Assembly (NCBI GenBank): GCA_947179485.1
Contig: OX359246.1
Span: 70,707,508-70,771,507, forward strand
Reading direction: 5' to 3'
Length of the DNA: 64,000 nt
Origin: Allacma fusca
Lineage: Eukaryota > Arthropoda > Collembola > Symphypleona > Sminthuridae
Numbering within the stretch: the first letter of the stretch is position 1; each line of letters opens with the position of its first letter. Both the position numbers and the translations under genes were made by a program. Positions 5,642 through 39,541 of the stretch are shown piece by piece. The notes beneath the pieces were generated by a model that ran no database searches, had not been told where the DNA came from, and saw nothing but the letters and a program-made list of their open reading frames with translations.

Positions 5642-6141
5642 TAGTGGTCGGACCAATTCAATTCAGAATTGGAAATTTTCGATTCGATTCGATTCGATTC
5701 AATTCGATTCAGTAGTATTTCGATTCGATTTGCAGCAAAGCCAAATCGAATGATTCGATTTGGGTACTGAACTGAATCGAATCATATCATGTGAATTGCA
5801 ATTCAAACAATTCATCAAAACCGCTTCGGCTGCGCACGGGTACTTTTTTTCCGCATATTCAAATTCCAAATACTACGTATACCACAACGTTTGTTATTTT
5901 AGCGTAGCTTTTACTATACCCTTTATAATGTGTATACGACACTCCAGTAACATAAGGAAAATTTTGCATTTTCCCGCCTGAATCGTTCGATTTACGATTC
6001 AATTCGATTCACTGAGTGAATTGAATCGAATTGAATTGCTTTGGGGCAAATTGAATCGAAAATCGGTTTTTCGATTCAATTCAAGCTTCAAATTGAATCA
6101 AATTGAAAAATTCGAATCAAATTGAATCGATCCGACCACTA
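5642..6141. mobile_element. hAT-like MITE with ATTCGATTC arrays
   Basis: The left end reads TAGTGGTCGGACC and the right end is its near complement GGATCC-less TCCGACCACTA. A perfect 8-bp direct repeat CTCGGAAA flanks it (5634-5641 and 6142-6149), which is the signature of hAT-superfamily insertion. There is no transposase. About 100-130 bp at each side are runs of ATTCGATTC / GAATCGAAT, in opposite orientations on the two sides; the centre (about 5800-5970) is unrelated. A 73-residue open frame inside is judged fortuitous. Confidence 0.8.
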
Positions 6142-6149
6142 CTCGGAAA

Positions 6150-7362
6150 TAGTTTTCTAGACTATATCATGAGTCATTTAGAAGGGAAATAAAATTGGGC
6201 GTCAACTACTCCAATACTGCCAACATAAATTGACAGATACATATAGATTCATCAGAGCATGTGGAGCAAATAGTTCAGTGGTCAAGAAATATGATGGTAA
6301 GTTTGAGAATTTAAAAAAAATTGTTTCGGAAATTTTGTGTGTTTTTGAATTGGCATTCATACTACGAGTCCGAACGTTAGATCCAACGAATGATAATTTT
6401 GTGTGGAGCTGATGGGGGAGAAGGCAGTTACTTCCGATAGGATCGGTGAGGTCATGTCATTGACCATGAACGAAGTCAAGGGGTGACCAAATTTCTTAAA
6501 TTGAAACAAGCATAGAAACAATTGGCACGATTTAAAATTTTCAATTGATGAAGCGGATTTATTACTTTGTGGCTAAACATTGTTTCGTTCAATTGCGGCC
6601 TGGCAAAAATCAAAATTTAAGTTCCCCTTAAAATTTCCAACTTTGACCCATTACCCTGACCCCTGAGGTTTTTCAATCCACGGGGACGGAAAAAAATTGT
6701 TTCGAAAAAAACAAATCGGGAAGAGACCTACAAAAAGGGGGAGTACGCTATTTTTTCATTATTGCCCTATCTGTTGCCTAGGGGGTGGAAAATTATTTTC
6801 TTTACCCAAAAGCATAATGGTAAGCATGGTACACAAAAGTATACCTAGATACATTTTCTACACAAAATTCTTATTTTCCATTCTGCTCATAATCTCGGCA
6901 CCATACAATTTCTGTCAGTGGTCCTCATTATTTTTTGATTTATTTTCTACATCAAATACATGCATAATTGGATACGAATATGCTTTGAACAATTTCAAAT
7001 GTTTACCCACATTGCTAGAAGCATGTCATTACTGCACGCGTTGAAGAACAAAATGTTTTTTCAATATGAGTCTTGACCCAAAAAAATTCTCAACTTCTAA
7101 TTTTTGGTAATTTTAAAAAACATTTATAAAATTTAATGTATTGCATGTTGTGAGAAAATATACTACACGCGGCTCATACCAAACACATTATTTCGCTGAT
7201 ATTTTGCATGTCTGTCAGAACTTGAATTAAATTTAATATAAAATACATAACACAAACACTAAATACATACGGACATAATAAAGTAAGGAGATGTATGTAT
7301 GCTCATATAGAATAGGTAATGAGGAGCATTTCCAAGTGCAAACTTAGCAAAGGACTAGAGGA
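6150..7362. other. Gene-free stretch
   Basis: AT-rich sequence with small open frames only. None has splice-compatible neighbours or a recognisable domain. The promoter region of the next gene lies at its right edge. Confidence 0.5.
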
Positions 7363-7370
7363 TTTATAAA
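7363..7370 (+). promoter_or_regulatory. Candidate TATA box of chemoreceptor-like copy 2
   Basis: TTTATAAA sits about 73 bp upstream of the chosen ATG, with TCAAC/TCACAT initiator-like words 25-35 bp further downstream. This is sequence-only support. Confidence 0.35.
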
Positions 7371-7442
7371 CCAAACATTTTTTACTCAACTCACATTTCG
7401 TGAAATTCATTTGGTCACCAAGCATCGCATTCAACATTCAAT

Positions 7443-9775
7443 ATGCTAGGACCAATTTCAAAAACGTTTTATTTCTCAGCCTTTTGGTGGAACAAAATAT
7501 TTTATTTACTTCCGTACGATTGGAATTGTAAACGAAAAGAACTTAGAGTACGGAAGGGCTTGAAGGGCTGGATCGGTTGGTACATCAACATCAGTATATT
7601 TTCGGTGATTTTGATCTGGGGCGTAGTCCGAACCATTCACGCGTATGGAGACCTGGACGGAAGCGAAAAGCAAATGCACTATTACGTCGGAACATATTAT
7701 TGGACACTCAACATGGTTTTGCATGTGGGTCTGCAAGCGAGTGTATATTTAACTGTTGAGGAATTTCCTGCTTATTTTTTCAACGACTTTAAGTTCTCCA
7801 ACACATTTAAAGGTAAATCTAGCACAATATATAATACACATCTTGTGTTATTCAACTTTGAAATTGTCACCTGTGAAGCATTATCAATCTCTATATTGCA
7901 CGCCTGCTGATGTGTGTTCATTTAAAACAGCGCAAAAACTATTCCCAATACCCAACAACCCGCCGGACTAAATAACTAACAACCCGCCGGGTTAATCACC
8001 TAGCTACCTCGAAATCCAAACGTGGTTTTACTCAATAGGAACCTCAAATTCGTTTTGCCAACTACCTAGGAAACCCAAATTTCTTTGCCCTACTACTTAC
8101 GATGCCCAAATTAGTTTTGCAAAACTACCTTGATTGGCCGAATTGATTTTATTTGCCCAATTTTTCAGCCCAACTACCCAAGTTGGTCATGTTATTTTGC
8201 CGAACCACCTCTGAAGCCCATTTTTGTCTGTCCAACTAACTCGGTAGGCCAAGATCTTTTCTGCCCAACTACCTCGCTGTTTCTATGCATCTAACCCCTT
8301 GGACCATTTGCCCAAGTAAGCGGGATCGTTAGTTAGGGAACGTTTTCACATTCGGCCTAACACAACGCACAATAGATGACAGCTGGACAAATACATACAT
8401 GCAGGCGCAGAAATTGCGATTCGAAGTAATTTCAAATCGATCGCAATCCACAATGACATTTAATCTCTAAGCGAAACCTATTTGACTAAATTGACATTGC
8501 CATTGCAGAAGCTGGCCTGTGTCAGCACATGCATTCCATACAGAAGTTTCGATGCAAAAGTAAGTTCTAATCGAATACGTTTACAATACTTAGCGATATT
8601 TGTAAAAGACAAGGGCTTAAGTAAAAAGATTTTCTAGACAGGAATTGCCAATGCTTGGCTAGGGAGTCCTTTAGCTAAGTATGTAACCTCCAACACACCC
8701 CTTCCCTCAAAGTAACTACCCCTGTCAGTTCAATACAATCAATTGAAATATATTAAATTAACAGTAGTTGGCAAGCGTCGAATGTTTGGCATCCCCTGAA
8801 TACCTCAGTATTAGTTAAGATAGTGGGAGCGTTTTCAACAACTAGTGTGCACCCAGTGTTTTAATTTTAAAATTCCACGGTTTTGTAGCAAAATATTTAC
8901 CAAAGGTGGACGGCGGTTGGAAGTCTAGCTTGAGGGATCCGATGGAGCTGTCGTATACTTGTTCATGGCTTGCTACGTGTGTTCTAGTAATTGTGATCCT
9001 AATATTGGCATGGATGTTTCCGAAAATCCACTTCCTACCTACATCGCTCATGGAACTTACCCCGGGGGTTCTATCATTTCTTACCACTTTCATGCAACTG
9101 GTTTTGGTTTTTTATATAGCGGGTAGTGCAATGTGCATCCTTCTTCTGTTCGGTTTGACTGGGCTTTCGTATCCTTACATGTCGGCCTTCGTCACCCGGG
9201 AACTCAGGTGTTTAATTATTAATACAGTTGGAATAATGTGATGTTGTATTGTTAGTAAATATTAAATTGATATAGGTAAGTATTATAATCAAAACTAAAT
9301 TTCTGTCAGCCTCGACTTGGACGAATACCAAACCAAGGACAGTCTTCGAACACCACAAGGGTTTCAGAAAATATATCGGCAACTTCATGTTATGCACATT
9401 CTGAATGTGGAACAATTCTCGGCAATACCGATACCCTTATTCTTCTGGACTTATTCTACAGCTATCTCAATTGTGTGCTACCAGTGCATTCGATTTACGG
9501 GGGTCGTGGTGTTTTCAAGTATGGTCCTTGGTTTTGCTATGCTGGGTTATTTAATTTTTGCATCCAGGAACATGGCAAATGTGCACACATCATCTCAAGC
9601 CATGTTGGAGAGCTGGAGGGCCAAACAGCATTGCCCTTATTTTCGAAAAGTTCTGAAAAGTTGCCGACCACTTAAGCATAAAGTTGGATCTTGGTTTTGC
9701 GTTGACAAGGGAATGATTGTAACCATGATGCAAAGCATATTGGATGGTACAGTCGGTTTAATCAACATTTTTTAA
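7443..9775 (+). CDS. Chemoreceptor-like 7TM protein, copy 2 (complete, three exons)
   Basis: Exons 7443-7812, 8889-9207 and 9310-9775 join in frame (junction codons GCA and AGC) to a 384-residue protein. The start ATG is the first in frame after a TATA-like box. Exon 1 gives two hydrophobic helices (about residues 38-62 and 80-102), exon 2 two more, exon 3 two or three, ending in a conserved-looking tail DGTVGLINIF. About seven helices in 380 residues with no signal peptide is the size and topology of arthropod gustatory receptor-like chemoreceptors, but no diagnostic C-terminal motif confirms it; another lineage-specific multi-pass family remains possible. Intron 1 (7813-8888) contains a degenerate about 50-bp tandem repeat; intron 2 is 102 bp. 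It is the tandem partner of the gene at 406-1292, about 8.5 kb away. The differences between the two proteins cluster at the start of the third helix. Confidence 0.65.
7961..8310. repeat. Degenerate about 50-bp tandem repeat in intron 1
   Basis: A unit resembling GCCCAACTACCTCG followed by a Y-rich CCCAAATT-TTTTG block recurs six or seven times with substitutions and small length changes. It lies inside intron 1 of the chemoreceptor-like gene. Confidence 0.6.
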
Positions 9776-10759
9776 ACCATCCAAACAAACTCGTTGTCCC
9801 ATGAATTGACTTCAGTGAACTTTAAATGGGGAAGGCGAAGATACTTACATGGCCGTGTTTGGTAAGGTAATAATGGAAACGGTAAAGTTTTGTTGATCAG
9901 AACGGGTTACAGTCAACAAGTAGAAACCCCAAAAGCACCAATAAAGTAATATATTTGTTATAGAGGTTCTCAGGTAAGAAATACATATTTGCACGAAGGT
10001 ATAAACATATGTACGTAGGATACAGGTATTATATGTTTTTGGAGCCACTCAAATATGTAATGTATAGCAAAACAAGCTCATTTCAAGAAAAATGGACTCA
10101 ATACATTTGTACTAGAATGTAGTGTGTCTGGAAAATATTACAGCAAAGCTAAAAGGAACAAGTGAATGATGCAGGTTACACCAGGAAATATTAACAAACT
10201 ACATTAATGAATGCCCTTAGTCAGATTGCATGCATAAAAGTCAACAAGCCTATTGCGAGGGTTAGGGTCAGGGTAAATATTGTCTTATTACTCTACCCCT
10301 GCTTACTCCGATCCTCACAATAAATGCAAAGTACCCCATAGGGTAATTAAATGTAAACAAACAATACATAAAACAAGAGGAAGGAGTAAAGTAAAACACA
10401 ATGCATGGACCGAGTACTATACTAGCTGCACTCGTCATGCTAATAAATGTAACGCTAATGAATGTAACGCTAACAATATGTACGTAAAAACCCGCACTAT
10501 GCTGTACGTACTTTATACAATTGCGGGACATCGTATTGCATTTGAAAAGAATCTGATCGGATTTGCTAACAATAAGTACGTACTAATTGTAAGCTTCGAA
10601 ATTATGCAATGCTCATGTTAATCTATTTTTCAATGTTATCAGAAATAATATAGTTGTAAAAATTCCTTTCGATTGCGACACACTTACAATTTTAACTATA
10701 TACGTATTACGTAGAGTTTTATGTATTTGATACACACTACGTCACCTCACATTAATACA
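9776..10759. other. Gene-free stretch
   Basis: 3' flank of the chemoreceptor-like gene. Open frames of 87-113 codons on both strands near 10.27-10.62 kb overlap each other, have TACGTAC-type simple sequence and no recognisable domain; I do not call them genes. Confidence 0.5.
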
Positions 10760-10767
10760 GTCTTATG

Positions 10768-11309
10768 CAGAGGTGTCCATCCTTCGAAGGATTTCCTTCA
10801 GAGAAGGCTTCTTTGAACGAATGAAGCGTTATCTTTGACAATTATGAAGGGAAGGGAAGGAAGGCTGGAAAGGAAACGAAGGCTGAACGAAGGCTTCTGC
10901 TCTTTGCAGAAATATTGGAATGTGAAGGAACATGTTGTTTTTACGCCTTCGAACGCCGCTGGAACTTGCAATTCCATCTACTATATTTTAGGCAAAATTC
11001 TTCCGTAACTTAAGTTCATGTACGTACGTACACCGTTACTCAACTGAAAACTATTTTTCTGGCGGGTCGGCTTAACGTTATTCTGAAACATTTATATCAC
11101 AAAGGCAGCATGATACCCGAAGCATGAAGGAATTTAAATAATTTTTGAAGGCTGAAGGAAGGATTATAGCATGGTTTTGAATGAAGGAAGGGCGAAGGAA
11201 GGATAAACATTCAGAAGGCTTCATTTTACGGAACGATGAAGGAACGGGTAATTGTAAACGGTTCTCCTTCTGAAGGATGAACGAAGGTGTTTTCAAATGG
11301 ACACCTCTG
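10768..11309. mobile_element. hAT-like MITE with GAAGG arrays
   Basis: The left end CAGAGGTGTCCAT and the right end ATGGACACCTCTG are exact complements. A perfect 8-bp target duplication GTCTTATG flanks the element (10760-10767 and 11310-11317), as for hAT transposons. No transposase is present. Both subterminal regions (about 10780-10930 and 11120-11295) are dense in GAAGG/GAAGGA words, all on the plus strand as read; the middle is unrelated AT-rich sequence. Confidence 0.85.
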
Positions 11310-11317
11310 GTCTTATG

Positions 11318-12204: not shown

Positions 12205-12212
12205 CCCGTAAT

Positions 12213-12379
12213 CAGGGGTGGATTTATGGGGTGGCCCACCCTGACCCACCCAATTTACACAAAATTTAGGGCCAGGGTTAAAAAAAATTATCGAAGGCCC
12301 TCAGATTTTTAGTTGAGTCCCACAAAGCCATTTTGAGGCTTATTGCCAGGGTAAAAATTATTTTATTAATCCACCCCTG
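12213..12379. mobile_element. Short hAT-like MITE (167 bp)
   Basis: The left end CAGGGGTGGATT matches the complement of the right end AATCCACCCCTG exactly. Flanking 8-mers CCCGTAAT (12205-12212) and ACCGTATT (12380-12387) agree at six of eight positions, consistent with an aged 8-bp hAT target duplication. There is no coding capacity. Confidence 0.7.
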
Positions 12380-12760: not shown

Positions 12761-13152
12761 TGTTTACGCCAACATGAGCAATGACCAGTTAAATGTAAAT
12801 ATACACTTTGCTTACCTGATAATTAACATTAACGCAGGGAACCCAGATCTCCCTTATCTTATCAACTTGACCTGCAGTGAACCCGCACTACCAGCGGGGA
12901 ACCCTCTGCTATTTATTTACTTAAGTAACCTAATCATAAACTACTAAAACATTCCAATGTACAAGGAAGCTACCTCTAATGACTCTTCTCTCAGCAGCCA
13001 AGCAAACCACTTGCCCATCATTCTTAAACTTAAAATAAAGTTATATTTAATTTTGGCTACAAACGTCTCAGTTTCCCCATTCACTGCATCTTATTATTCC
13101 CACTACTCAATCTCATGGTGCATACATCCACAGCCATAACATCAGGCAAACA
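12761..13152 (+). repeat. 5' LTR
   Basis: TG...CA ended, 392 bp. A candidate polyadenylation signal AATAAA lies at 13034-13039, so the R region probably ends shortly after it. Confidence 0.93.
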
Positions 13153-13153
13153 T

Positions 13154-13171
13154 TGGTCCTTCGAACGTAAG
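13154..13171 (+). promoter_or_regulatory. Primer-binding site
   Basis: TGGTCCTTCGAACG begins two bases after the left LTR. It begins with TGG, as expected for pairing with a tRNA 3' CCA end. I cannot name the tRNA with confidence. Confidence 0.6.
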
Positions 13172-13235
13172 TGGTGTGAACCAGCGCCAGTTTTTTGAGT
13201 TTTCGGAGTGAAGTGCTGCAAAAATTGTGTGCGGA

Positions 13236-16200
13236 ATGGCAGATCCCAAGAACAGCTTCCGAGGCCTCAAGGGAGCCCTCACAAGATACAAGAAAGCAAT
13301 CCAGGACTTCGACATCAATAATGTCACCCGAGCCAACCACAACACATACCTCAAGAACATTGAGGGACTCAAGTCCAAAATTGACGATGTATTCCAAGAG
13401 CTGTTGGCTCTATGCAAAGACCAGAAAGACATTGACCAGGTCGAGGCGGACATCAACCCAGTCCTTGACGAAATTGTCGACCTGGAGAACAAGCTGGACG
13501 AGTGGGACACGACAATAGCAGAGAAGGAGTCAAAAAAGGAAGAGCAAGCCGCACTTAAACGCATAGAAGCTCAAGTGCAAGCACAGGCTGCGACTGCCGC
13601 TGCAGCAGGATCAACGCCGCCCGTGGTCACTCAACCCCCATCACAGAGACCAAAGCTTCCCACACTGGCCCTGCCGAAATTCTCTGGCTCATTTGAAGAC
13701 TGGCTGCATTTCCGCGATAGATTTATCCAGTCGGTCCACTCCCGCACAGATCTATCCGACGCAGAGAAGCTTCAATATCTACTAGCATCCCTGGAAGGCC
13801 CCGCCGCCGAAACCATCAAGTCACTTCCGATCAATAATGCAAATTATCAACCCGCCTGGAACCAGCTCAAGCAACAATACGAGCACACCAGGGAGCTCAT
13901 TTACCGCCACGTAAGCTGTATCCTGGATCATCCACAAGTGAGTGACCTCACAGCAACGACCCTTCAAGCCCTCCTAGCCACCACAACGAATGCGCTAAGC
14001 GCAATTGAAGCCCTGAAGATGAAGCCTACGGAAGGGGAGGACATCATTGTGACCATCGTAGTTAGGAAGTTGGACCCCCGCACCCGGCTGAGGTTCCATC
14101 AATCGCTACCGGACACCGCCATGCCTAAGTGGGACATTCTCACAGCCTTCCTTCGCAAGGAAATTGCAGACTTGTCATCCGCCACCCACCAAGTAGCACC
14201 GGTTTCTTCGCACTCCGGCGGGGACCACCGCAAGTCCACCCCTACCTCAATCCCGGCCAAAGGTAATAACAAACCGACATGTCAATTTTGCAAGGGGGAC
14301 CACCTCAACTATACCTGCCCTAAGCTAACTGACACCCCTCCAGCTGACAGAAGAACCTTCATCGGCCAGCATAAAGTATGCTCCAATTGCCTACGGGTCG
14401 GCCACTTCTGGAAAAAATGCCCATCATCAGCGTCCTGTAGGGAGTGCAAGCAAAAGCACCACAGCCTTTTGCACGTAGCTTTCAACCCAAAGAAGGTCGA
14501 ACGACCAACAACAACAACCTCACTCACGGAAACATCGCAACCGTCCATGAAGCTGAAGCCAACGGCCATGGTAAAGGTCATGGGCCAGGGTGACCAACAC
14601 TTGGACTGCCGCGTCCTGCTGGACAACTGCAGCGATGAATCCTTCATCTCCTCCTCCCTGGTCACCAGGCTTGGTCTTAAACGCCAACGACTAGCCACCC
14701 CACAGAATGTGCAGGCACTTCAAGGAGTGGGAGTAGCTACAATCACTGAGGCCGCTCAAATCAAGCTCACCTCACGTTACAACCCTACAACCATCATTTC
14801 TGTGGTCGCACTCATTGTGAAGTCCATAGGCGGACAGTACCCCCACGCACCCCTGGACACGAAGGACTGGTCCCACATTCCTGCAGAAGGCTTGGCTGAC
14901 CCCAGCTTCCACAACCCCGGACCAGTAAGCATCCTCCTCGCAACGGACATCTACCACGATGTCATTAACCAAGGCCTCCTCAAAGGCAGCAAAGACCACC
15001 CAACAGCGCAATTCTCCACACTCGGTTGGCTCATTGGGGGCGGACGGTCCAGTGTAAAACCAGGCACTACACAGTGCAATCTAACCTCATGCACACTAGA
15101 AAAAGACATGGCTCGATTCTGGACAGTGGAGGACTGCACTACCTCTAAAAGGATCCTCACCACAGAAGAACGAGCCTGTGAACAACACTTCACCGAAACC
15201 ACGACAAGGGAACCCGACGGAGCCTTCCAGGTGCGTCTCCCATTTAAAGACAACTCCCCTCCCTTAGGAAATTCTCTCTACATGGCGACAAAGCGTTTCC
15301 ACAATCTGGAGCAGAAGCTTGCACGCCAGCCCGAGCTCCGCAAGCAATATATTGCAGCCATGGAAGATCTCATCTGTCACCGACACTTGGAGCCAGTCCC
15401 GCAACAAAGCCGAGCAATACCCGACGCCCACAGCTACTTCCTCCCCCACCACGCAGTCCTGAAAAGCAGTAGCTCCACAACCAAGCTGCGAGTAGTGTAC
15501 GATGCCAGCGCACGGACCACCACTGGAACGTCCCTGAACGAGAAGTTAATGGTGGGCCCAGTCCTGCAGGAGGACCTCTTTACCATATTGACCCGGTGGA
15601 GATGGTGGCTAGTAAGCCTCTCAGCGGACATCAAGCAGATGTTTCTCTACATCCGCGTACATCCAGACGACCGCAGCTTCCTCCGACTACTGTGGAGAAA
15701 GAGCCCACAGGACACACTGAAGTGGTTCCAACTCAAAAAAGTAACCTTTGGCACCGCAAGTGCATCACATCAGGCAGTCCGATCACTACAGCAACTAGCA
15801 GAGGATCACCAGGACGAGTTCCCGCAAGCCGCATCCGTGCTCAAGCGCGACTTCTACGTCGACGACTGCCTCACGGGAGCCAACACAGTAGAAGAAGCTA
15901 AGTATCTGCAACAACAGTTACAGTCGTTGGCAGAGAAAGGCACATTCGTCCTTCGCAAGTGGACCTCCTCATCCCAAGAAGTCCTGAAGAATCTGCCTGA
16001 GTCACTGTGTGACTTCAACCCACTCAGCCTCAACACGGATGGAGCCAGCAAGGCACTCGGCCTCATTTGGAGCGCCTCCTCTGACCACTTCCGGTTCGAA
16101 ATTAGGACACCCACGGCTACTAAAATGACCAAGCGGACCATCCTGGCTGAAATAGCCCGAGTCTTCGATCCACTGGGATTTCTCGCCCCCGTCACAATCC

Positions 16201-18566
16201 GAGCCAAGCTCATAATGCAGCAGCTCTGGAAGGCCGAAACGGAATGGGACGCGACCCCGCCAAAAGACATTCTACGGTCATGGTCGGAGTACCAAAAGGA
16301 GCTCCTTCAGATCCAAAACCTGCGCATCCCTAAATGCATCACCATGCCCCAAGCAACCGAAATTCAGGTCCATGCGTTCTCCGACGCCTCCGAAAAAGCC
16401 TACGCCGCGGCAATATATCTGCGGACCATCTCAACTAACTCCGTCCAAGTCCGACTTATTGCATCCAAGAACAGGGTGGCTCCAATAAAACCCCTCTCAC
16501 TACCGCGACTGGAGCTATGTGGAGCTCTAATGGCCGCAACCCTAGCTCAAGCAATCACTAACGCACTACCCTTCCCGTCACCAGTCATCTTTGGCTGGAC
16601 TGATTCCACCATCGTCTTAGCGTGGATCAAAGGAGACCCACAAAGATGGAAGACGTTCGAGAGAAACCGCGTTGTCCAAATCCAGGACAGCATACAGGGA
16701 GCCAACTGGAGCCACGTCCCAGGACTACAGAATCCAGCAGATCTACCTTCAAGGGGTATCCCAGCTGCGGACCTCAGCAGCAATTCCCTCTGGTTCAACG
16801 GCCCCCAATTCCTACACAGTGGCCACATCCATCCCCAGCCAGTTCCATCACAAAGCGACCAGGTCCGAAATGACTCCCATACGCTTCCCACGCATATCCC
16901 AGAAGATTCCCTCGTAACCCTTTTGACCACTAACGACACAACCACAGAGGCCCAGTTGAACGACCGTTTACGGAATTACTCTTCCTGGCCCCGACTTCGA
17001 AGACACGTAGCCCATTGGATCCGTCTATGGCAATGGCACACCAGCAAGTTCAATAAGCTACAGCTACCAACCAGAGGAATCCTCACAACATCCGAGCTAC
17101 AACAAGCTGAACGGGGAATCATCCGATTTCTCCAGCAGCAGCATTACCCCCACGAGATCAAGCAGCTGAAAAGTAAGCAAAAGCTTCATCGTAAGTCCCC
17201 GGTATTGGCACTCATGCCCTTCCTCGACCAACAGGGACTCCTCAGGGTGGGCGGCAGACTACGTCAGGCTGACCTCGCATACAACCGCAAGCACCCAATC
17301 CTGTTACCACGGCATCACGTAACCGACCTCATCATCCTACAACATCATTTACGAGCGAAGCACGGAGGTATGCAGCTCACTCTCTCCCTAATTCAGGAAT
17401 CCTTTTGGATCATCCGAGGCAAGAGCCTCGTCCGACGTATTATCCGAGCCTGCAAAACATGCGTCCTACACCGTGCCCAGCAGCCACAACAGCTCATGGC
17501 CGACCTACCCGCCTCAAGAGTGGCCCCATCCCGCCCCTTTACTCACGTAGGAGTCGACTTCGCCGGACCTTTCATCCTCAGGGACTCCTATTCTAGAAGC
17601 AGCAAGACCCATAAAGCGTATATGTGTGTATACGTATGCTTCTCCTGTAAAGCCGTCCACCTGGAAATGGTAAGCAGCCTCACCACAGAGGCCTTCCTCG
17701 CATCCTTCCGAAGGTTCTCCAGCTCTCGGGGACTGCCATCCGTGCTCCACAGTGACAATGGCACCAACTTCGTGGGTGCAAAAAGGGAGCTCAGCAAAGT
17801 TTGGGACTTCTACCTGCAGGAAGAGGCACAAGGGAAAATCACAGCAACCCTGGCTGAACTGAAAGTGGAGTGGAGAATGAATCCACCAGCAGCCCCTCAC
17901 ATGGGCGGCCTATGGGAGGCCGCGGTGAAATCCGCCAAAACTCACATTCAGAAGGTCATCGGACTGACCCCACTCAATTTCGAGGAGTATACTACACTAC
18001 TGAAGGAAGTTGAGGCCTGCCTCAACTCAAGACCAATCTGCCCCGTGACCTCCGACCCAGCCGACCTGGAGGCTCTAACCCCAGGACACTTCCTCGTAGG
18101 AGCCCCATTGCTAGCCACCCCTGAGCATGACTGGCAGGATATCAAGTCTAACCGACTCTCCCGTTGGCAAAGAACCCAGCAACTAAAGCAACAATTTTGG
18201 ACCAGGTGGCAACAAGAGTACCTCCAGCAACTACAGCGGAGGACCAAATGGAAGACCTCAGAACCGAACCTGGAGGAAGGAGACATGGTCGTCGTACGGG
18301 ATGACCACTGCCCACCACAGAAGTGGAAGCTAGCCAGGATAGTCAACCTCCATCCTAACCCAGCAGATGAACAGCTCCTTGTCCGCTCCGTAACTGTGAG
18401 GACCAAAGACGGTCTCATGAAAAGACCCATCACCAGATTAGTGCTGCTCCCTAAAAACCCGGACTTGACCCAGGTGGCCACACACCCGTTGGAACTACCC
18501 AGTCCAGCACTGCCAGAGGACACCGCAAGCAGACCTGCAGGTTACGCGGGAGCGAAAGCTCTGTAA
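13236..18566 (+). CDS. BEL/Pao Gag-Pol polyprotein
   Basis: A single uninterrupted 1776-residue frame from the ATG at 13236. In order it shows: a coiled N-terminal Gag part; a DUF1759-like Gag domain (LPKFSGSFEDWLHF, about residue 150); two or three CCHC-like knuckles (about 348-410); an aspartic-protease-like segment (LLDNCSDESFI, about 460); reverse transcriptase starting near 750 with YVDD at about 874; RNase H (HAFSDASE about 1046, later GWTDST); an HHCC integrase zinc site (about 1360-1395); the DDE integrase core (VGVDFAGPF about 1439, HSDNGTNF about 1505, GGLWEAAVK about 1557); and a C-terminal DUF5641-like module (about 1680-1740). The order PR-RT-RH-IN is that of BEL/Pao elements. 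The polyprotein packages and reverse-transcribes its own RNA in cytoplasmic particles and inserts the cDNA. Oddity: the protease site reads D-N-C where D-S/T-G is usual. There is no envelope frame. Confidence 0.95.
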   Translation: MADPKNSFRGLKGALTRYKKAIQDFDINNVTRANHNTYLKNIEGLKSKIDDVFQELLALCKDQKDIDQVEADINPVLDEIVDLENKLDEWDTTIAEKESKKEEQAALKRIEAQVQAQAATAAAAGSTPPVVTQPPSQRPKLPTLALPKFSGSFEDWLHFRDRFIQSVHSRTDLSDAEKLQYLLASLEGPAAETIKSLPINNANYQPAWNQLKQQYEHTRELIYRHVSCILDHPQVSDLTATTLQALLATTTNALSAIEALKMKPTEGEDIIVTIVVRKLDPRTRLRFHQSLPDTAMPKWDILTAFLRKEIADLSSATHQVAPVSSHSGGDHRKSTPTSIPAKGNNKPTCQFCKGDHLNYTCPKLTDTPPADRRTFIGQHKVCSNCLRVGHFWKKCPSSASCRECKQKHHSLLHVAFNPKKVERPTTTTSLTETSQPSMKLKPTAMVKVMGQGDQHLDCRVLLDNCSDESFISSSLVTRLGLKRQRLATPQNVQALQGVGVATITEAAQIKLTSRYNPTTIISVVALIVKSIGGQYPHAPLDTKDWSHIPAEGLADPSFHNPGPVSILLATDIYHDVINQGLLKGSKDHPTAQFSTLGWLIGGGRSSVKPGTTQCNLTSCTLEKDMARFWTVEDCTTSKRILTTEERACEQHFTETTTREPDGAFQVRLPFKDNSPPLGNSLYMATKRFHNLEQKLARQPELRKQYIAAMEDLICHRHLEPVPQQSRAIPDAHSYFLPHHAVLKSSSSTTKLRVVYDASARTTTGTSLNEKLMVGPVLQEDLFTILTRWRWWLVSLSADIKQMFLYIRVHPDDRSFLRLLWRKSPQDTLKWFQLKKVTFGTASASHQAVRSLQQLAEDHQDEFPQAASVLKRDFYVDDCLTGANTVEEAKYLQQQLQSLAEKGTFVLRKWTSSSQEVLKNLPESLCDFNPLSLNTDGASKALGLIWSASSDHFRFEIRTPTATKMTKRTILAEIARVFDPLGFLAPVTIRAKLIMQQLWKAETEWDATPPKDILRSWSEYQKELLQIQNLRIPKCITMPQATEIQVHAFSDASEKAYAAAIYLRTISTNSVQVRLIASKNRVAPIKPLSLPRLELCGALMAATLAQAITNALPFPSPVIFGWTDSTIVLAWIKGDPQRWKTFERNRVVQIQDSIQGANWSHVPGLQNPADLPSRGIPAADLSSNSLWFNGPQFLHSGHIHPQPVPSQSDQVRNDSHTLPTHIPEDSLVTLLTTNDTTTEAQLNDRLRNYSSWPRLRRHVAHWIRLWQWHTSKFNKLQLPTRGILTTSELQQAERGIIRFLQQQHYPHEIKQLKSKQKLHRKSPVLALMPFLDQQGLLRVGGRLRQADLAYNRKHPILLPRHHVTDLIILQHHLRAKHGGMQLTLSLIQESFWIIRGKSLVRRIIRACKTCVLHRAQQPQQLMADLPASRVAPSRPFTHVGVDFAGPFILRDSYSRSSKTHKAYMCVYVCFSCKAVHLEMVSSLTTEAFLASFRRFSSSRGLPSVLHSDNGTNFVGAKRELSKVWDFYLQEEAQGKITATLAELKVEWRMNPPAAPHMGGLWEAAVKSAKTHIQKVIGLTPLNFEEYTTLLKEVEACLNSRPICPVTSDPADLEALTPGHFLVGAPLLATPEHDWQDIKSNRLSRWQRTQQLKQQFWTRWQQEYLQQLQRRTKWKTSEPNLEEGDMVVVRDDHCPPQKWKLARIVNLHPNPADEQLLVRSVTVRTKDGLMKRPITRLVLLPKNPDLTQVATHPLELPSPALPEDTASRPAGYAGAKAL

Positions 18567-19110: not shown

Positions 19111-19134
19111 TAACCCTTATTGTTATTATTTTAA

Positions 19135-21452: not shown

Positions 21453-21801
21453 AATGCATGTACATAAATTCTGTCCCTAGGAAAGCATCAATTGATAACG
21501 GAAGGGAAGAATGATTCATAAATGCAGCCAATTGCATATCTGGCAGGACTGAATAAGTTTAATCTGCACTGCACGACTCAACAATAACGTATTGAGTCAT
21601 TTTTCAAAAGAAAGCTAGCGTGTATGTAAAATATTGATTTTCTGCATAAAATATTTAAAACGGGAAAACAATTGGTAAATTTATACTACAACCCAACTGT
21701 AAATTACTTCATACCATTGTATTTCAAAATATTAACTATACATACATGAACACCCCACTTGTTTTTCTAACTCAATGCCCTCACATGGGTAAACCGGGCA
21801 G

Positions 21802-22656
21802 TAGGGAAGCTCATGGGAACAGGACCAACCCGGGTATTTGGGTACAGGAACAGGAACAGGTCCAAAATGGGTACAGTTTAAAAGTTCCCAATTGTAACAG
21901 GAACAATACAGGTACTTTTATTTTGTACCCAGAAACCCGTGACCACAGTCACAAACAGGTACAGGAACGAAAGTCGTTCCTGTTTGTGTGTTCCCAATAG
22001 GAACAGGTCCACACTGTTGAATGACCCATATTTAAACGTGTGGACCCGGGTACTTTGAGGTTTTTAAACTTCAATCATTTCCAAAGCACCAATGAACGCT
22101 GGAAATGAATTTTGAGCATTCCAGTGCAATTACTGCAGGTAGGTTTTATTGTAATATAAAAGTAGTAATACAAATTATTTATTTATTTCTACAGGAAACA
22201 TTCGGAAGCATTTACGAAGATAAACTTAGCAGCAAAAAATCTTAAAAGTAAAGTTGCTTTTCCGCCCTTAAAAGTAATAAACAAGTTACGGTACAATATT
22301 TATTTTATAGTACAAAAATATGCAGAAACAATGAAATTATTTACTGAAAAAGCGAAAAAAAAATAGTAAAAAAAAGTTTAGCTTAAATTCATGTTTAAAC
22401 TAAAGTACCCGGGGACGCACCCGGGTACTTACATAACGTTTGGGAATGGGTACACGTTTTGGGTACTTTTCAGGAACGGGTACAATTTCAGGAACAGGTA
22501 CACGATTTTGGACTTGTGAACAGGTACAGGAACGGAAAATTTGTACCTGCAAAAGTTTAGCATAGGTACAGGAACATAAATTTTGTACCTGTATTTATGG
22601 GTTCGTGTTCAGGAACAGGAACAGGAACCAAGTTTTTGTACCTTTGCGCTTCCCTA
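21802..22656. mobile_element. hAT-like element with GGTACAGGAACAGG arrays (855 bp)
   Basis: Ends TAGGGAAGC and GCTTCCCTA are complements. A perfect 8-bp target duplication CCGGGCAG flanks it (21794-21801, 22657-22664). The paralogous copy has a single CCGGGCAG at 29076-29083 with both flanks joined, so this is a proven insertion. About 220 bp on the left and 260 bp on the right are arrays of GGTACAGG / GGAACAGG / GGGTAC words; about 330 bp in the middle is unrelated. There is no transposase. Confidence 0.92.
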
Positions 22657-22777
22657 CCGGGCAGAAAAAATGCAAGCACCGCATTTTTCCCATATGCTGT
22701 TGTATTTGCATAAAGCGAAAGTTTTGAACTATTCTTTCCTTTGGTGTAAATACAAATATTCCATAACATGCTTGGGC

Positions 22778-23939: not shown

Positions 23940-24320
23940 CAGGGGTCGGATTTTTGTAAATCTCCCTGGAAGATCATTTCTGAATTTCCCTGCTGACTAT
24001 TATCTCCCTGCTCGTAGGTCCTCAAGGATTTCAAAAATCCCTGCTGAAAAAAGGTCAACGATCCCTGTTTGCAAATAAATTCTCTTACAAGACGTGAATT
24101 CCCTGCCAAATTAGGTCAATCAAGCCAAAAATCCCTGTTTGCTTAAAAATGTTCCCTGAAACACGTCAAAAAATGTGAAAATCCCTGCCAAAAAAAAGAT
24201 CAACGATTTTAAAAATCCCTGTTCGTAAAAATAAATCCCTTCCCTTTGAGATTTTTCCTGCCAGAAATATTTTTTCCCTGCGAAGATTCTTCCCGTCTTC
24301 CCACAAAAATCCGACCCCTG
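23940..24320. mobile_element. hAT-like MITE with AAATCCCTG arrays
   Basis: Left end CAGGGGTCGGATTTTTGT and right end ACAAAAATCCGACCCCTG are exact complements (18 bp). The paralogous site at 30,211 lacks it and reads straight through. Flanking 8-mers GCAGTGGT and GCATGATT are a degraded duplication (a one-base slip aligns them better). The whole interior is built from words like AAATCCCTG / CCCTGCTGA spaced 20-35 bp apart. Confidence 0.85.
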
Positions 24321-27678: not shown

Positions 27679-27955
27679 CAGGGGTCGGACGTTTGGGGAA
27701 AGACGGGAAGATTCTTCCCAGGGAAAAAATATTTCTGGCAGGGAAAATCACAAAGGGTAGCGATTCTGTTTTACAAACAGGGATTTTTAAAATCGTTGAT
27801 CTTTTTTCGGCAGGGATTTTAAAATTTGTTCGCGTGTTTCAGGGAAATTTGTTAGGCAAACAGAGATTTTTAGAATGGTTGACTTATTTGACAGGGATTT
27901 GATGTCTTGTAGGGAAATTATTTTTGCCAGCAGGGAATCTGTAAATCGTTGACAA
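27679..27955. mobile_element. Partial copy of the CAGGGGTCGG / AAATCCCTG hAT-like element
   Basis: Begins CAGGGGTCGGACG and continues with AGACGGGAAGATTCTTCCCAGG-like and repeated CAGGGATTTT words matching the right half of the element at 23,940-24,320 in reverse orientation. The opposite end is missing, apparently lost where duplication copy B begins. Confidence 0.7.
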
Positions 27956-28030
27956 TTTATTTGGCTTTATTTGATTCCACGATTTTGTCGAAAACGATGA
28001 ATTTGCTCTCGAATGAAAATACCCAAAATA

Positions 28031-28239: not shown

Positions 28240-29195
28240 CCCAAAATGCCGGGCAATTTTGAGTCGACATACCTCATCGTGAATTCAGCTTACCCCGCAA
28301 GAATGCACAATTATAATTGAAAATGGTTGGAAAATTATACCATTTTGTTGACCCAGAAGTTTACAATCAAGGGTCTGCAAATTCCCCAAGCAAATAATCA
28401 TAAATTGTTAGGTTATACATTAATAACTAAAATCCAATGATCATGTAAATTTTACATTACAAAAGTCAAACCGAATATTCATCGGGATAATCCGTATTAT
28501 GTATTGTCTATAAAGCGTGCAAACGTGTTATTATTGAGTATTGTTTAAGTTGGTTGAGAAATAAATTACATTCTGCAATCTTAAATTACCTCTTTAACTA
28601 GAAATTAATTTGAATTACCAAATTGAGCTTGATTTAAACAAACTTGTGTACTGGTGTGGTAGTTGTGTTGTTGTGAATCTACAAGTCATTCAAACAACTA
28701 TCAATTATTATTATTACTACTACAATGCATGTAGATATGTATATAAATACTTTCCCTAGGAAAGCATAAGTTGGTAAAGCAAGGGAAAAATAATTCATAA
28801 ATGCAGCCAATTGCATATCTGGCAGGACTGAATAAATTTAATCGGCACTGCACGACTCAACAATTACGTATTGTGTCATTTTTTCAAAAGAAAATTAGCG
28901 TATATGTAAAATATTGATTTTCTGCACAAAATATTGAAAGCACGTGAAAACCATTCGTAAATTTATACTACAACCCAACTGTAAATTACTTCATTACATT
29001 GTATTTCAAAATATTAACTACACATACATGAACACCCCACTTGTTTTTCTAACTCAATGCCCTCACATGGGTAAACCGGGCAGAAAAAATGCAAGCACCG
29101 CATTTTTCCCATATGCTGTTGTATTTGCATAAAGCGAAAGTTTTGAACGATTCTTTCCTTTAGTCTAAATGCAAATATTCCATAACATGCTCGGG

Positions 29196-29205
29196 TATAT
29201 ATATT
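29196..29205 (+). promoter_or_regulatory. Candidate TATA box, Cys-rich peptide gene B
   Basis: GTATATATAT in the same position relative to the ATG as in copy A, within a block conserved between the paralogues. Confidence 0.45.
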
Positions 29206-29313
29206 TTGTGACTCGTGCAATTTTCACATTGCAGTGCTGAAACTGATTTTGATTCATTTTTGAAGACATTCGTACTCTTTATATTATATTATTAATTTAT
29301 CAGCAGGAAAACC

Positions 29314-29942
29314 ATGCGATTAATTTTTGCTGCACTTTTTGTAGTCTTCTCCGTGTTCGTTTACAAATCGGACTCCAATCCGCGAGGAGCCAGTAAGATT
29401 TTATATGTATACAAACACAATTAGTCAAATCAATTGAATAATAAATTTTTAAATAAAACCTGCAAAATATGAATTGTCATTATTTTGGGTTATTTACAAC
29501 AGTATCATTAAGAATCCATTGGGTTCCACCCATTTCCCGTGAAAGATGTACCGCTGGTCGATCCTGGAAACCATCGAAAATTCGTTGCGCGGAGTGTTTC
29601 TGCATTGTGAGTAGATTTTCCCGCTGTTACCCCGCTTCTGGCTGCGACCCTGTAGCTCAGAGCGCTACATCGAACTCGGCAACAACAACAATGAAGACTT
29701 CTGCAACAAACCCTGTAACCACAGAAGTTGGAGATACTTCGGACAACACAGCAGAACCAACAGAAAATAACACGCCCAATGCGGTAGCGGACCCAATTAA
29801 CGTGACATCGGGGTCAGATTCTGCCGATTCTTCAGCCACAGGTGACGCTTCTACTGCCGATACCTCTGACACTGATGAGACAACTGTGGCTTCATCGCCA
29901 TTTAAAGGCGGAAAAATTCGTAATATTGCCAAAATTAAATGA
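29314..29942 (+). CDS. Secreted pacifastin-like Cys-rich peptide with acidic Ser/Thr tail (copy B)
   Basis: Exon 1 (29314-29392) and exon 2 (29503-29942) join in phase 1 (codon ATC... via A|TA) to 172 residues. The signal peptide MRLIFAALFVVFSVFVY is nearly the same as in copy A. The six-cysteine module has identical spacing and differs from copy A at only a few residues. The tail (about 95 residues) is rich in Asp, Glu, Ser, Thr and Ala and ends with a basic GGKIRNIAKIK, a possible processed or matrix-binding end. It probably represents the ancestral form of the family in this locus. Pacifastin-type protease inhibition is inferred from cysteine spacing; a single-domain VWC or novel Cys-rich peptide is the alternative. 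It is expressed from its own TATA promoter and not in an operon. Confidence 0.65.
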
Positions 29943-30790
29943 AATATTTTTACTAATATTTAAATATCCGTATTTTACTGAGTTGACCGAGTATTTTTGA
30001 AATGTATAGGACGAAACCACCGCCGGCCTAAATATCATCCGTTGTGAGTTACGACTTGGAGCAACACTAATTCCAGGGAGATTTAATACGAAAAACAGAA
30101 ATAAGTAAATTAGGCCACTAGAAATTACGGCCAGCCCAGATTCTGTAACTGGGATTTATGGTTATATTTACCAATGGATTGAATGGATGATGCCTAAGAA
30201 ATAGCAAATAGCAGTGGTTGGGGTAGATGTTAACTATAAAGAATTTTTACATATTAGGAAAAATCTTAAGGACTTTTCCGTTGTTCAATAATCCGAATAG
30301 TATTTACATCTACAAGTTACAAACAATAATTACGTCTATGTCCCATGTGGGATCCGAATAAAATTCCCTGAGCTTTATTAATTAACTAATTTAATTTTTT
30401 AAATATCCCAAATTAAAAATAATTGTACTTCATATATAGCTTCTGGAACCTACATACTTTTTAAATAGACACTGCTTATATAGCCAGAAGCTACAATAAT
30501 ACTTTTTCCAGGTCCCCAGGGGGTCACCACACCATGGGTGGCTCAACGTTTGTCCCGTCATTTTTATATGGTTCGACGCTTTGACGGGGATTTGTCCTCG
30601 AAAATATATTTCAGCATGAATTATTTGACAGTAGATGGAAATTGGTAAAATTGTTACCCACAATTTAAGACACCATCTGGGATGGTAAGCCTAAATCCAA
30701 AATATTAATTAATTATTATACTACACAGGCACCCTCATCCAAGTTATTGTTTTGTTAGAATTTAATTATTCTAGAATAAATAAATACGAA

Positions 30791-37530: not shown

Positions 37531-37690
37531 CAGGGCTGCACAATTTAAAGGCCATGGCATTTTCGGTACTATGCCTGTAAAATGCCGGGCATTTTGGGCA
37601 TTTTGAGCTATTTCAGCCTATAGTGCAGGAATTTTGGCCATTTTCTCCCCGATTTTTTCGATATGAGCTTTAGCTTTCTACTAATTTTGC
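37531..37690. mobile_element. hAT-like element end with GGGCATTTTG motifs
   Basis: Starts CAGGGCTGCACAATTTAAAGG, then repeats GGGCATTTTG / GGCATTTT words. Related words in the opposite orientation occur at the left edge of both segmental duplication copies (about 20,980-21,110 and 27,980-28,260). The matching right end was not found. Confidence 0.4.
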
Positions 37691-38261
37691 ATACTAAATC
37701 ACAAAGCAGTGGGTTTGAATAGACAATGTAGTGAAACGGATCTTTATGTATTTTATATTATTAGAAGATCTCGTTCTCATGCATGATAATGCATAATTAT
37801 CAAAAGACTTCGAGTTCAAGAGCAAACATTATTGGGAAGATGCATCACAAAAATATTTAAAACTGACAAGAAATCCATAGTTCATGTGTTTCAAAACTCG
37901 TCATCAGTAAACAGTATAAATTGTAAATTTTTGCCTTGCAAAATTTTGATGTTATAAAATCTAAAATTCAATATTAATGAAACTTAATTTTTGATAGAAA
38001 TTTTTTTGTTGCTTTTTAAGTACTGTTTATCAACAAAATTTGAAGTATTCACAAGAACTGGTCAAATCGCTCTTTTAAAACACCTAGTCTTCTATAATAA
38101 AGGTGAATGTTTGCAACTTTTAAAAACAAATTAATGTTTCAAAATAATTGTGTAGGTTTTTTTAAAATCTTTTCTTAATCCATTTTTTGAACCACTGACG
38201 ATAAATAATGAATTAGGATAATTCGATTTTTTAGAAAATCAACATTAAAACTTTCTTCAGA
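37691..38261. other. Gene-free stretch
   Basis: AT-rich unique sequence between two element remnants. It may be the body of the element whose left end is at 37,531. Confidence 0.35.
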
Positions 38262-39112
38262 CAGTGGTCGTCATGGGTAGAAAAAGTTTGTCCCCGTTCC
38301 CGCTCCTGTACCCACTCAACGGGTACTCCCTTAAGTGTTCCCGTAACCGGACCCGTTCCCGCCATCGTAAGTACAGTATTTTAGGTACCTGTTCCTACGA
38401 ATTTATTTAAAATGCGTATCCGGACCCGTTCCTGTTTCTGTACCCAGAAATTGGAAATGTTTTGTACCCGTACCTGTTCCCCCAGCCCTTGTTCCCGGTC
38501 CCTGTCCCGGGTCCAAGTATCTATTACTATACATAAGTGTAGTCAAAATAATTAGCAGGATTTTCATCAAACCCTTCGTTTTGCAGATAAACGACAGACA
38601 ATATACAGGGGGATTAATCCCCCCCTTAGCGAAACGTTACCGCATAATAACTAATTGTTTAATTCTTCAGGGATTATGTACCGAGTCGTGTTGAGGAGGG
38701 TTTAAAAGTATTATGTATTGCTTACTCTTTAAGATCAATGGCTGGCCCAAAGATAATTATTCTACATAAACAATATATCAGATATCAGAGAAGAATATAT
38801 ACCGGCACTGGTCATTTTCCATTTGTTAGTCACATTTGAAGAAAGGATTAATTCGATCAAAATCTTTTTAAAGCGTGAAACTTTTAGCAGAAATTGCACA
38901 AGTCACTAATATGTAATTATTTGAATATATTTTATATAAATTTGTAGAACACTTTGGAGCTACTGTAGATAATACAGCTATTATACTGAAACAGGAGCCT
39001 TAATAATCATTAAAGCCGTTTGAATATAAAAAATATTTGTTCCCGTACCCGTTCTTGTACTCGTTCCCGTTCCCATGTAGCCGGGTGTCACCCGTTCCCG
39101 TGACGACCTCTG
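38262..39112. mobile_element. hAT-like element with CCCGTTCCTGTACC arrays (851 bp)
   Basis: Left CAGTGGTCGTCATGGG and right CCGTGACGACCTCTG are near complements. Dense CCCGTTCC / GTACCC words occupy the left about 250 bp and right about 90 bp, around an unrelated AT-rich centre. The motif is the complement of the array motif in the element at 21,802-22,656 although the termini differ. Flanking 8-mers do not form a convincing target duplication, so the exact ends are uncertain. Confidence 0.65.
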
Positions 39113-39212
39113 GTGTGAGACTAAGGTCTCACTATCTTATATATAATCTTAGGGCTATTTCATATTAAGACCTATCTCTATTTGGATCGGCCTACCCTAC
39201 CCATCTCTATTT

Positions 39213-39541
39213 TATCCCTGGGAAGAAATATTTCTAGCAGGGTAAATATCAAAGAGAAGGGATTTATTTGAACGAACAGGGATTTTTAAAATCCTTGACC
39301 CTTTTTTTGGCAGGGATTTTCAAATTTGTTGACGTGTTTCAGGGGAATTTGTTATTCAAACAGGGAGTTTTAGATTGATTGGCCTAATTTGGCAGGGATT
39401 TCACGTCTTGTAGGGGATTTTGAAAATCGTTTACCTTTTTTTCAGCAGGGAATTTTTTTGAAATCGTTGAGGACCTACCAGCAGGGAGATAATAGTCAGC
39501 AGGGAAATTCAGAAATGATCTTCCAGGGAGATCCACAAAAA
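39213..39541. mobile_element. Internal fragment of the CAGGGGTCGG / AAATCCCTG element
   Basis: About 330 bp closely match, in reverse orientation, the interior of 23,940-24,320, including the block TCAGCAGGGAAATTCAGAAA at 39,497. Both terminal repeats are missing. Confidence 0.75.

What the first reader, a model, noticed from the sequence alone, without database searches (positions are those of the whole stretch)
5642..39541. A set of hAT-like families, each with its own short-motif array inside
Elements at 5,642, 10,768, 21,802, 23,940 and 38,262 (plus fragments at 27,679, 37,531 and 39,213) share a layout: short hAT-type ends, arms built from one 9-14-bp word repeated many times, and usually a small unrelated centre. 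The word differs by family (ATTCGATTC, GAAGG, GGTACAGGAACAGG, AAATCCCTG, GGGCATTTTG). Two elements with different termini (21,802 and 38,262) share the same word. This suggests the arrays, not just the termini, are the recognised part, and that motif and terminus can be recombined. This is the most system-like signal in the window.
Basis: inference. Interest (0 to 1): 0.75.

Follow-up and report, generated by a model that had tools for sequence, protein, structure and literature searches.

The report
Jumping genes with repeated address words
In a springtail genome, small non-coding jumping elements carry arms built from their own short DNA word repeated many times, and in the best-sampled family those words are kept far more intact than the rest, as expected if they are the address that the moving enzyme reads.

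Summary
The window is from the springtail Allacma fusca or something very near it. Elements at 5642, 10768 and 21802 have matching ends and perfect 8-bp target duplications. Those at 21802 and 23940 are missing from a paralogous copy in the same window. 27679 and 39213 are further copies of 23940.

Forty copies of the 5642 element are full length; 39 of 40 have the 8-bp duplication and 29 of 40 keep exactly 26 words. Words vary nine-fold less than arm spacers and fifteen-fold less than the centre. In this family the arrays are inherited and constrained, not private microsatellites.

In a 200-kb sample picked by ends alone, 6 of 7 elements carry such arrays, four with new words. Similar tips go with different words.

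Best explanation: non-autonomous hAT elements whose arms are expanded subterminal repeats, probably bound by the transposase's BED finger. The 5642 word matches seven of eight bases of the measured Herves site. "Motif and terminus recombine" is only partly right: 21802 and 38262 look like colinear relatives with diverged tips.

No transposase was found; that genome search did not complete. New variant of a known kind.

The parts
5642..6141 (+). Element A: hAT-like non-autonomous element, 500 bp, tips TAGTGGTCGGA, word C[AG]ATTC
   Evidence: TIR and TSD; 16+10 words; 40 genome copies, 39 of 40 with TSD at least 7/8
5634..5641 (.). Target duplication CTCGGAAA, left of A
6142..6149 (.). Target duplication CTCGGAAA, right of A
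5642..5815 (+). Left word arm of A (approximate inner limit)
   Evidence: largest word gap 5808-5980
5976..6141 (+). Right word arm of A (approximate inner limit)
10768..11309 (+). Element B: tips CAGAGGTGTCCAT, word GAAGG (21 fwd, 4 rev), word-poor centre about 10951-11125
10760..10767 (.). Target duplication GTCTTATG, left of B
11310..11317 (.). Target duplication GTCTTATG, right of B
21802..22656 (+). Element C: tips TAGGGAAGC, word GG[AT]AC (26 fwd, 8 rev), AT-rich centre about 22061-22390
21794..21801 (.). Target duplication CCGGGCAG, left of C
22657..22664 (.). Target duplication CCGGGCAG, right of C
29076..29083 (.). Empty site of C in the paralogous copy: single CCGGGCAG
23940..24320 (+). 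Element D1: tips CAGGGGTCGGATTTTTGT, word CCCTG (12 fwd, 1 rev)
30211..30218 (.). Empty site of D1 in the paralogous copy: gcagtggt
   Evidence: read by eye; the MAFFT alignment misplaces this short junction
27679..27952 (-). D2: copy of D truncated at its inner end
39213..39543 (-). D3: copy of D with lost tips
38262..39112 (-). Element E: tips CAGWGGTCGTCA, word GG[AT]AC on the minus strand (18 of 20), centre about 38516-39035
37531..37690 (+). F: fragment with word GGGCATTTT; weak here, matches part of the complete array element L175:4041-4975
4799..5485 (+). Element G, not in the finding: TIR ATATCGTCGGTGAAGAGGCA, mirrored arms of GCAAAATGATCTAGATGC-like words about 32 bp apart, no 8-bp duplication
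12213..12379 (+). H: hAT-like ends (CAGGGGTGGATT) without a word array; a counter-example
   Evidence: ends read by eye; no array

Best explanation
These are non-autonomous hAT-superfamily transposons (MITE-like) of Allacma fusca whose two arms are enlarged arrays of a family-specific subterminal repeat. Shown here: cut-and-paste insertion marks, empty sites for two elements, inheritance of the array in copies of A and D, reduced variation at words in A and D, one word per family, similar tips paired with different words. Inferred: the words are docking sites of the N-terminal BED zinc finger of a hAT transposase encoded elsewhere; the short tip is what the catalytic core cuts; many weak sites let one multimeric enzyme find and hold the element; arrays grew by slippage of a pre-existing site; and copies with damaged words jump less, so words stay intact. 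A change of BED specificity would then go with a change of the whole array, giving families with alike tips but different words.
For: hAT marks: perfect 8-bp TSDs of A, B, C; empty sites of C and D1; 39 of 40 A copies with TSD. Inherited arrays: 31 of 40 A copies are exactly 500 bp and 29 of 40 have exactly 16+10 words; three colinear D copies. Constraint: in A, substituted cells are TIR 0/1040, arm words 10/5671, arm spacers 111/6876, centre 174/6399; variable columns 5/142 words against 28/172 spacers (Fisher p=1.7e-4) and 42/160 centre (p=1.7e-8); 1 of 313 rotations of the word mask does as well. In D, invariant C/G non-CpG columns 30 of 32 in words against 22 of 40 outside (p=1.9e-4); rotation 6 of 2000. 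Generality: 6 of 7 end-defined elements of a 200-kb sample carry arrays at 0/500 shuffles, against 26 of 200 control segments at 0/100; p=5.6e-5. Precedent: Herves transposase binds C[G/A]ATTCAT and a tetramer of CGATTCAT is sufficient (PMC3143072); the Kat1 substrate carries AATTCA repeats (PMC4763223); A holds C[GA]ATTCA 18 times (expected 0.7) and AATTCA 8 times (expected 1.7), each 0 of 1000 shuffles; Hermes BED domains bind subterminal repeats (PMC10368747); AAACGG repeats bind Ac transposase (PMC3260210).
Against: No transposase or autonomous partner was seen; the PF05699 search of the genome did not complete. No binding data. The exact octamer CGATTCAT occurs 0 times in A and its variant CAATTCAT once; the match is 7 of 8 bases and was noticed after the fact, among eight motif forms tried. 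Words of B-E match none of those forms, apart from a mild excess of Hermes AAG[TC] in C (25 against 16.2 expected, 15 of 1000). Array arms also occur in G, which lacks an 8-bp duplication, and tandem arrays without ends occur at 53-62 kb, so array growth is not peculiar to hAT elements here. H, and L182:992-3600 with imperfect ends, have no array. Three hexamers are reported as required for Ds1 excision, some Ds1 move without any, and Ds-like elements with hexamers did not move; inner sites of Hermes could be mutated without dramatic loss. So 13-34 words per complete element exceed the known need. Singleton variants are also absent from A words (0 in 142 columns against 9 in 172 and 13 in 160), which selection at transposition explains only if most singletons predate the last jump.
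Confidence: 0.7

Rival explanations
1. Passive arrays: slippage enlarged some sequence inside a master element, which was then copied with the element; the words bind nothing. Reduced variation at words reflects few source lineages or repair between neighbouring words.
For: The 6-bp register of C (13 of 23 spacings are multiples of 6) and E (11 of 15), points to slippage; end-less arrays at 53-62 kb and the array arms of G show that arrays arise readily here; 26 of 200 control segments also have a word beyond 100 shuffles; singletons also avoid words.
Against: 6 of 7 end-defined elements against 26 of 200 controls; word columns vary less than spacers of the same arms in A and, in D, less than other C/G columns without CpG; words crowd into the first and last 200 bp, with 0-2 in the middle in eight of the ten array elements longer than 400 bp; the A word resembles a measured hAT binding site.
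Confidence: 0.17
2. Sink or brake: surplus words bind transposase without promoting cutting, so the arrays titrate the enzyme or hold their own mobility down.
For: 13-34 words per complete element against the three hexamers reported as required for Ds1; subterminal inhibitory sequences in piggyBat, of another superfamily (PMC11707139, abstract only).
Against: A spread to at least 40 near-identical full-length copies with full arrays, so the arrays do not stop mobility.
Confidence: 0.07
3. Host factor sites: words recruit a host DNA-binding or chromatin protein, and the element profits by expression, opening or targeting.
For: One-strand polarity of B-E; the Hermes authors suggest a cellular factor for the inner ends.
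Against: Each family has a different word while tips fall into few classes; a host factor would favour one shared word (inference).
Confidence: 0.06

Closest known systems
Herves (hAT, Anopheles gambiae), PMC3143072; text parts 1-3 of 5 and passages seen
   Same: Subterminal C[G/A]ATTCA sites at both ends, several per end, bound by the transposase; a tetramer of the octamer is sufficient for binding; [quoted passage not shown]
   Different: Herves encodes its transposase. A is 500 bp, has 26 C[AG]ATTC cores filling both arms, and has no exact CGATTCAT.
Kat1 and the Kluyveromyces lactis MATa locus, PMC4763223; passages seen
   Same: AATTCA repeated six times between the TIRs; A carries AATTCA 8 times.
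   Different: A domesticated single-locus system; its authors only speculate that the repeats help.
Hermes, PMC10368747; passages, section 8 and section 17 part 1 seen
   Same: BED fingers of a multimeric hAT transposase bind short subterminal repeats, arranged asymmetrically at the two ends.
   Different: Sites are scattered and their positions near the left tip are strict; inner sites could be mutated without dramatic loss. Here sites form dense arrays.
Ac/Ds of maize, PMC3260210; passages seen
   Same: Non-autonomous Ds with 11-bp TIRs, multiple AAACGG sites within 200-bp ends and, in many, unrelated filler.
   Different: One word for the whole Ac/Ds family; here each family has its own word and the arrays are denser (density in Ds not measured here).
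hAT MITEs such as Mar and BuT2 derivatives, PMC3517528 and PMC3942097; passages seen
   Same: Short, non-coding, 11-12-bp TIRs (Mar CAG(G/A)GGTAGGC), 8-bp TSDs.
   Different: No word arrays mentioned in the passages seen.
Foldback elements such as Tetris, PMC4079207; abstract and outline seen
   Same: Tandem repeats inside the arms of a non-autonomous transposon.
   Different: Tetris repeats are about 220 bp and its arms are inverted; words of B-E run mostly one way through both arms.
Coral CMITEs, PMC2872659; abstract and outline seen
   Same: An inner part more conserved between families than the tips, as for C and E.
   Different: piggyBac-like; the abstract does not describe the inner region as a word array.

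Membership tests
hAT superfamily | 8-bp target site duplication | tested here: met
   A, B, C perfect; A 39 of 40 copies at 7/8 or better, 38 perfect. D1 and E only 4 of 8; D1 has an empty site instead, E rests on its TIR alone.
hAT superfamily | Short TIRs (5-27 bp per PMC3517528) | tested here: met
   9 to 18 bp, with 2 mismatches in E, in A-E
hAT superfamily | Transposase with hAT dimerisation domain and BED finger | not tested
   PF05699 search of the genome did not complete; 20 of the 87 window frames of 90 aa or more were scanned with Pfam and showed none; complete elements are 381-855 bp
hAT superfamily | Short subterminal repeats near both ends | tested here: met
MITE | Short, no coding capacity, high copy number | tested here: met
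   A: 500 bp; 40 scored full-length copies, 1083 candidates. Copy number of B, C and E not tested: searches not answered; no B, C or D match in the 200-kb sample.
Herves-type binding site | C[G/A]ATTCAT repeated at both ends | tested here: inconclusive
   7 of 8 bases: C[GA]ATTCA 18 times; full octamer once, as CAATTCAT
Foldback transposon | Long inverted arms that fold back | tested here: not met
   Holds in part for A (fold z -11), but words of B, C, D, E run mostly one way through both arms; D1 fold z -3.0; B, C, E not folded
Plain microsatellite or satellite array | Grows at one site, with no element ends or dispersed colinear copies | tested here: not met
   (A, C, D)

The most novel reading that the evidence does not exclude
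The springtail's hAT elements use a two-part address whose parts evolve separately: a slowly changing tip class read by the catalytic core, and a word array that is rewritten as a whole whenever a transposase lineage changes its BED specificity. One genome would then hold many orthogonal enzyme-word pairs (nine words seen here), with arrays enlarged by competition for enzyme. The nested A-like element at about L171:7085-7498, with an A-like end but words shifted from a CGATTC/CAATTC mix of 14 to 12 in A to 1 to 10, would be one such rewriting caught half-way.
Probability: 0.3. Interest if true: 0.75.

Novelty: new variant of a known kind. Interest (0 to 1): 0.55.

Why it matters
How a transposase lineage acquires a new DNA address without losing its own elements is an open question. 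A genome with many sister families, each with a clear, repeated and (in the two families tested) conserved word, would supply natural pairs of BED finger and target that can be read off sequence and tested. It is also a warning that repeat finders may split such elements or mislabel them as low-complexity sequence. Seven literature searches on this point listed no paper whose title or abstract start describes hAT families with arms of family-specific word arrays; two of them returned nothing at all, one search listed 20 of 24 papers and one search listed 8 of 266. The library holds only open-licence papers, and repeat databases were not searched.

Tried and rejected
Autonomous partner: 20 of the 87 window frames of 90 aa or more and 7 frames of L169, L175 and L182 were scanned with Pfam; no hAT or BED domain. 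A CxxC stretch in the centre of L169:7961-9318 looked BED-like by eye, but Pfam gave nothing and a protein search with an overlapping frame found no relative; dropped.

The A pattern found none.

Helical phasing of words: no consistent period near 10.5 bp across families. TSD preference of A: T at position 2 in 18 of 39 and A at position 7 in 20 of 39, only weakly like the Ac-type nTnnnnAn (label recalled; seen only as a search term in the listing); not used.

mis-oriented part of the A copies because the tips are symmetric; one search replaces it. One search used 20 copies and is superseded. A first k-mer filter (at least two G or C) hid the AT-rich word of L184:566-1424, giving 5 of 7 against 16 of 142 controls; one search relaxed the filter for elements and controls alike, after I had read that element by eye. 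H was first tested with slightly wrong ends (12214-12372) and retested at 12213-12379. The word mask of A is defined on the majority consensus, so a site lost in most copies would not be counted. The 40 A copies are those scoring best against the window copy out of 1083 candidates.
Full report
Where the window comes from. The frame at 47266-49659 is identical over its residues 121-509 to a partial Allacma fusca protein in the database, so the window is from this globular springtail or something very near it (lineage). The genome search later placed it at G000:C8:70707508-70771507 of a 392.7-Mb assembly.

Checking the observation. A whole-window scan for 12-bp inverted ends with at most one mismatch and flanking 8-bp direct repeats with at most one mismatch gave five pairs. 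Three are the elements A (5642-6141), B (10768-11309) and C (21802-22656), each with a perfect duplication; two are chance pairs between array words. A scan of 16-bp ends beginning C/T-A-G with at most two mismatches also returns A, D1 (23940-24320) and E (38262-39112): 10 pairs in the real window against 0 or 1 in five shuffled ones (several of the other pairs are words of G). D1 and E have decayed duplications (4 of 8 each).

Empty sites. A segmental duplication, 20960-24587 against 27962-30463, is a natural experiment. Its second copy lacks C and holds one CCGGGCAG at 29076-29083. It also lacks D1 and holds one gcagtggt at 30211-30218 (read by eye; the automatic alignment misplaces this short junction).

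Words. The commonest 5-mer and 6-mer of A, B, C, D1, D2, D3 and E exceed all 500 dinucleotide shuffles; G, F and H do not pass on this measure. On a second measure, pairs of repeated 6-mers, A (z 24.5), C (21.9), B (19.3) and E (9.1) exceed all 100 control windows (maximum 7.3), while D1 (6.3), D3 (5.1) and D2 (3.7) do not. Word densities are 22-fold (B), 55-fold (D), 57-fold (A) and 194-fold (C and E together) above the rest of the window. On one strand through both arms lie 21 of 25 words in B, 26 of 34 in C, 12 of 13 in D1, 8 of 8 in D2, 10 of 11 in D3 and 18 of 20 in E; A has 16 and 10. In C and E, 13 of 23 and 11 of 15 neighbouring spacings are multiples of 6, which points to growth by slippage of a six-base unit. 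In A, B, C and E a word-poor centre separates the arms.

Inheritance and constraint in D. D1, D2 and D3 are colinear through the array. Eight word sites have letters in all three copies and four of these are identical in all three, against 17 of 136 non-word blocks. Among C/G columns without CpG, 30 of 32 word columns are invariant against 22 of 40 others (p=1.9e-4); 6 of 2000 rotations of the word mask do as well. TCCCTG ranks third of 23 repeated 6-mers in conservation, behind two shifted versions of itself.

Inheritance and constraint in A. The genome search scored 40 full-length copies at 97-100% identity, including the window's own, out of 1083 candidates. I fetched the 39 others. Of the 40, 39 have duplications of at least 7/8 (38 perfect), 31 are exactly 500 bp (range 494-501) and 29 have exactly 16 forward and 10 reverse words. 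Tips show 0 of 1040 substituted cells, arm words 10 of 5671 (0.0018), arm spacers 111 of 6876 (0.0161), centre 174 of 6399 (0.0272). Variable columns are 5 of 142 words, 28 of 172 spacers and 42 of 160 centre. One of 313 rotations of the word mask does as well. The order tip, word, spacer, centre is what a binding-site model predicts. Against it, singletons also avoid words (0 in 142 columns, against 9 in 172 and 13 in 160), which needs most of them to predate the last jump.

Is it general? I took 20 stretches of 10 kb at regular steps on contigs C1, C5 and C9 (200 kb) and looked only for ends: first base C or T then AG, 11-bp TIR with at most one mismatch, 8-bp duplication with at most one mismatch, 150-6000 bp. 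Shuffled sequence (window plus sample) gave no hit; the sample gave seven. Six carry a word beyond all 500 shuffles: L169:7961-9318 (TATTGA), L171:6840-7707 (TATCGT), L175:4041-4975 (ATGCCC, the word of fragment F), L176:6872-7371 (a copy of A), L184:566-1424 (GTATTT) and L184:5283-6189 (GCGAAA). L171, L175, L176 and L184:5283 have no word in the middle; L169 (5 of 13) and L184:566 (6 of 24) are less clean. L182:992-3600, with imperfect duplication and ends, has no array. Of 200 random control segments, 26 pass 100 shuffles; 6 of 7 against 26 of 200 gives p=5.6e-5. With the first, stricter word filter it was 5 of 7 against 16 of 142 (p=6.2e-4). In the window, H (12213-12379) has hAT-like ends and no array. 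No copy of B, C or D matched the sample; A, E, F and G did.

Tips against words. Three tip classes appear by eye: YAGKGGTCG (A, D, E, L169), CAGAGGTGTSS (B, L184:566) and TAGGG (C, L171, L175), with L184:5283 (TAGGCTTGGGA) apart. Within each class the words differ. C and E share a word across classes, but their ends align in register: E's first 60 bp fit C best at its first position of 796 and E's last 60 bp at the last of 796. In the reverse tests the matching end was second or tied for second, 1 and 2 points behind an inner position. So C and E look like colinear relatives whose outer ~9 bp diverged, at both ends together. This is separate evolution of tip and array, not free shuffling. L171:7085-7498 is an A-like element (88% over the first 60 bp) with 1 CGATTC and 10 CAATTC, against 14 and 12 in A: an array shifted to a neighbouring word.

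Mechanism. hAT transposases recognise short subterminal repeats through a BED finger (Hermes), and C[G/A]ATTCAT repeats suffice for binding by the Herves enzyme. A carries the first seven bases of that site 18 times where 0.7 is expected, though never the exact CGATTCAT and only once CAATTCAT. Kat1's substrate carries AATTCA, present 8 times in A. None of the eight motif forms tried is enriched in B, D or E, and in C only Hermes AAG[TC], mildly. I therefore commit to arrays of transposase docking sites (0.7). Binding, the enzyme itself and the benefit of many words remain inferred.

Limits. The search for hAT transposases in the assembly did not complete, nor were the copy searches for B, C, D and E. 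B and C are thus seen here once each, D three times in the window, and E once plus E-like arms at L175:306-546 and L173:48-278. G shows that array arms are not limited to elements with 8-bp duplications, and the arrays at 53-62 kb show that arrays grow here without recognisable element ends.

Noticed in passing
4799-5485; L171:4297-4638: Element G: 20-bp TIR ATATCGTCGGTGAAGAGGCA, mirrored arms of GCAAAATGATCTAGATGC-like words about 32 bp apart, no 8-bp duplication (TA would fit); a compact relative lies in L171.
   Followed up: partly
12761-19111: Bel/Pao-type LTR retrotransposon with identical 393-bp LTRs (12761-13153, 18719-19111) and one open frame; recent insertion.
   Followed up: no
20960-24587 and 27962-30463: Segmental duplication with a small gene that looks secreted by eye; copy A has a long ACA/CCA-type repeat (23291-23571) that copy B lacks; the truncated D2 abuts the start of copy B.
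   Followed up: partly
about 24588-25822: Further insertion in copy A with ends GGGGCGAAGC (by eye), absent from copy B.
   Followed up: no
53583-54727, 55415-56285, 58790-59157, 61362-62018: Large short-unit arrays (11, 27, 14/28, 28 bp) without transposon ends found by the scan; the first lies between two minus-strand frames with Jiraiya-domain hits, one strong and one below its cutoff.
   Followed up: no
36-1335 and 8520-9826: 91% identical duplicated block, part of a multi-exon gene resembling a chemoreceptor by eye; frames 7404-7907 and 8846-9238 had no Pfam hit.
   Followed up: no
L171:6840-7707: An A-like array element sits inside another array element (word TATCGT), a nested insertion.
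   Followed up: partly
10781-10790 and 5659-5671: B (CCTTCGAAGG) and A (CAATTCAGAATTG) have a head-to-head pair of words near the left tip, recalling the left-end quasi-palindrome of Hermes; seen by eye in 2 of 5 families, untested.
   Followed up: no
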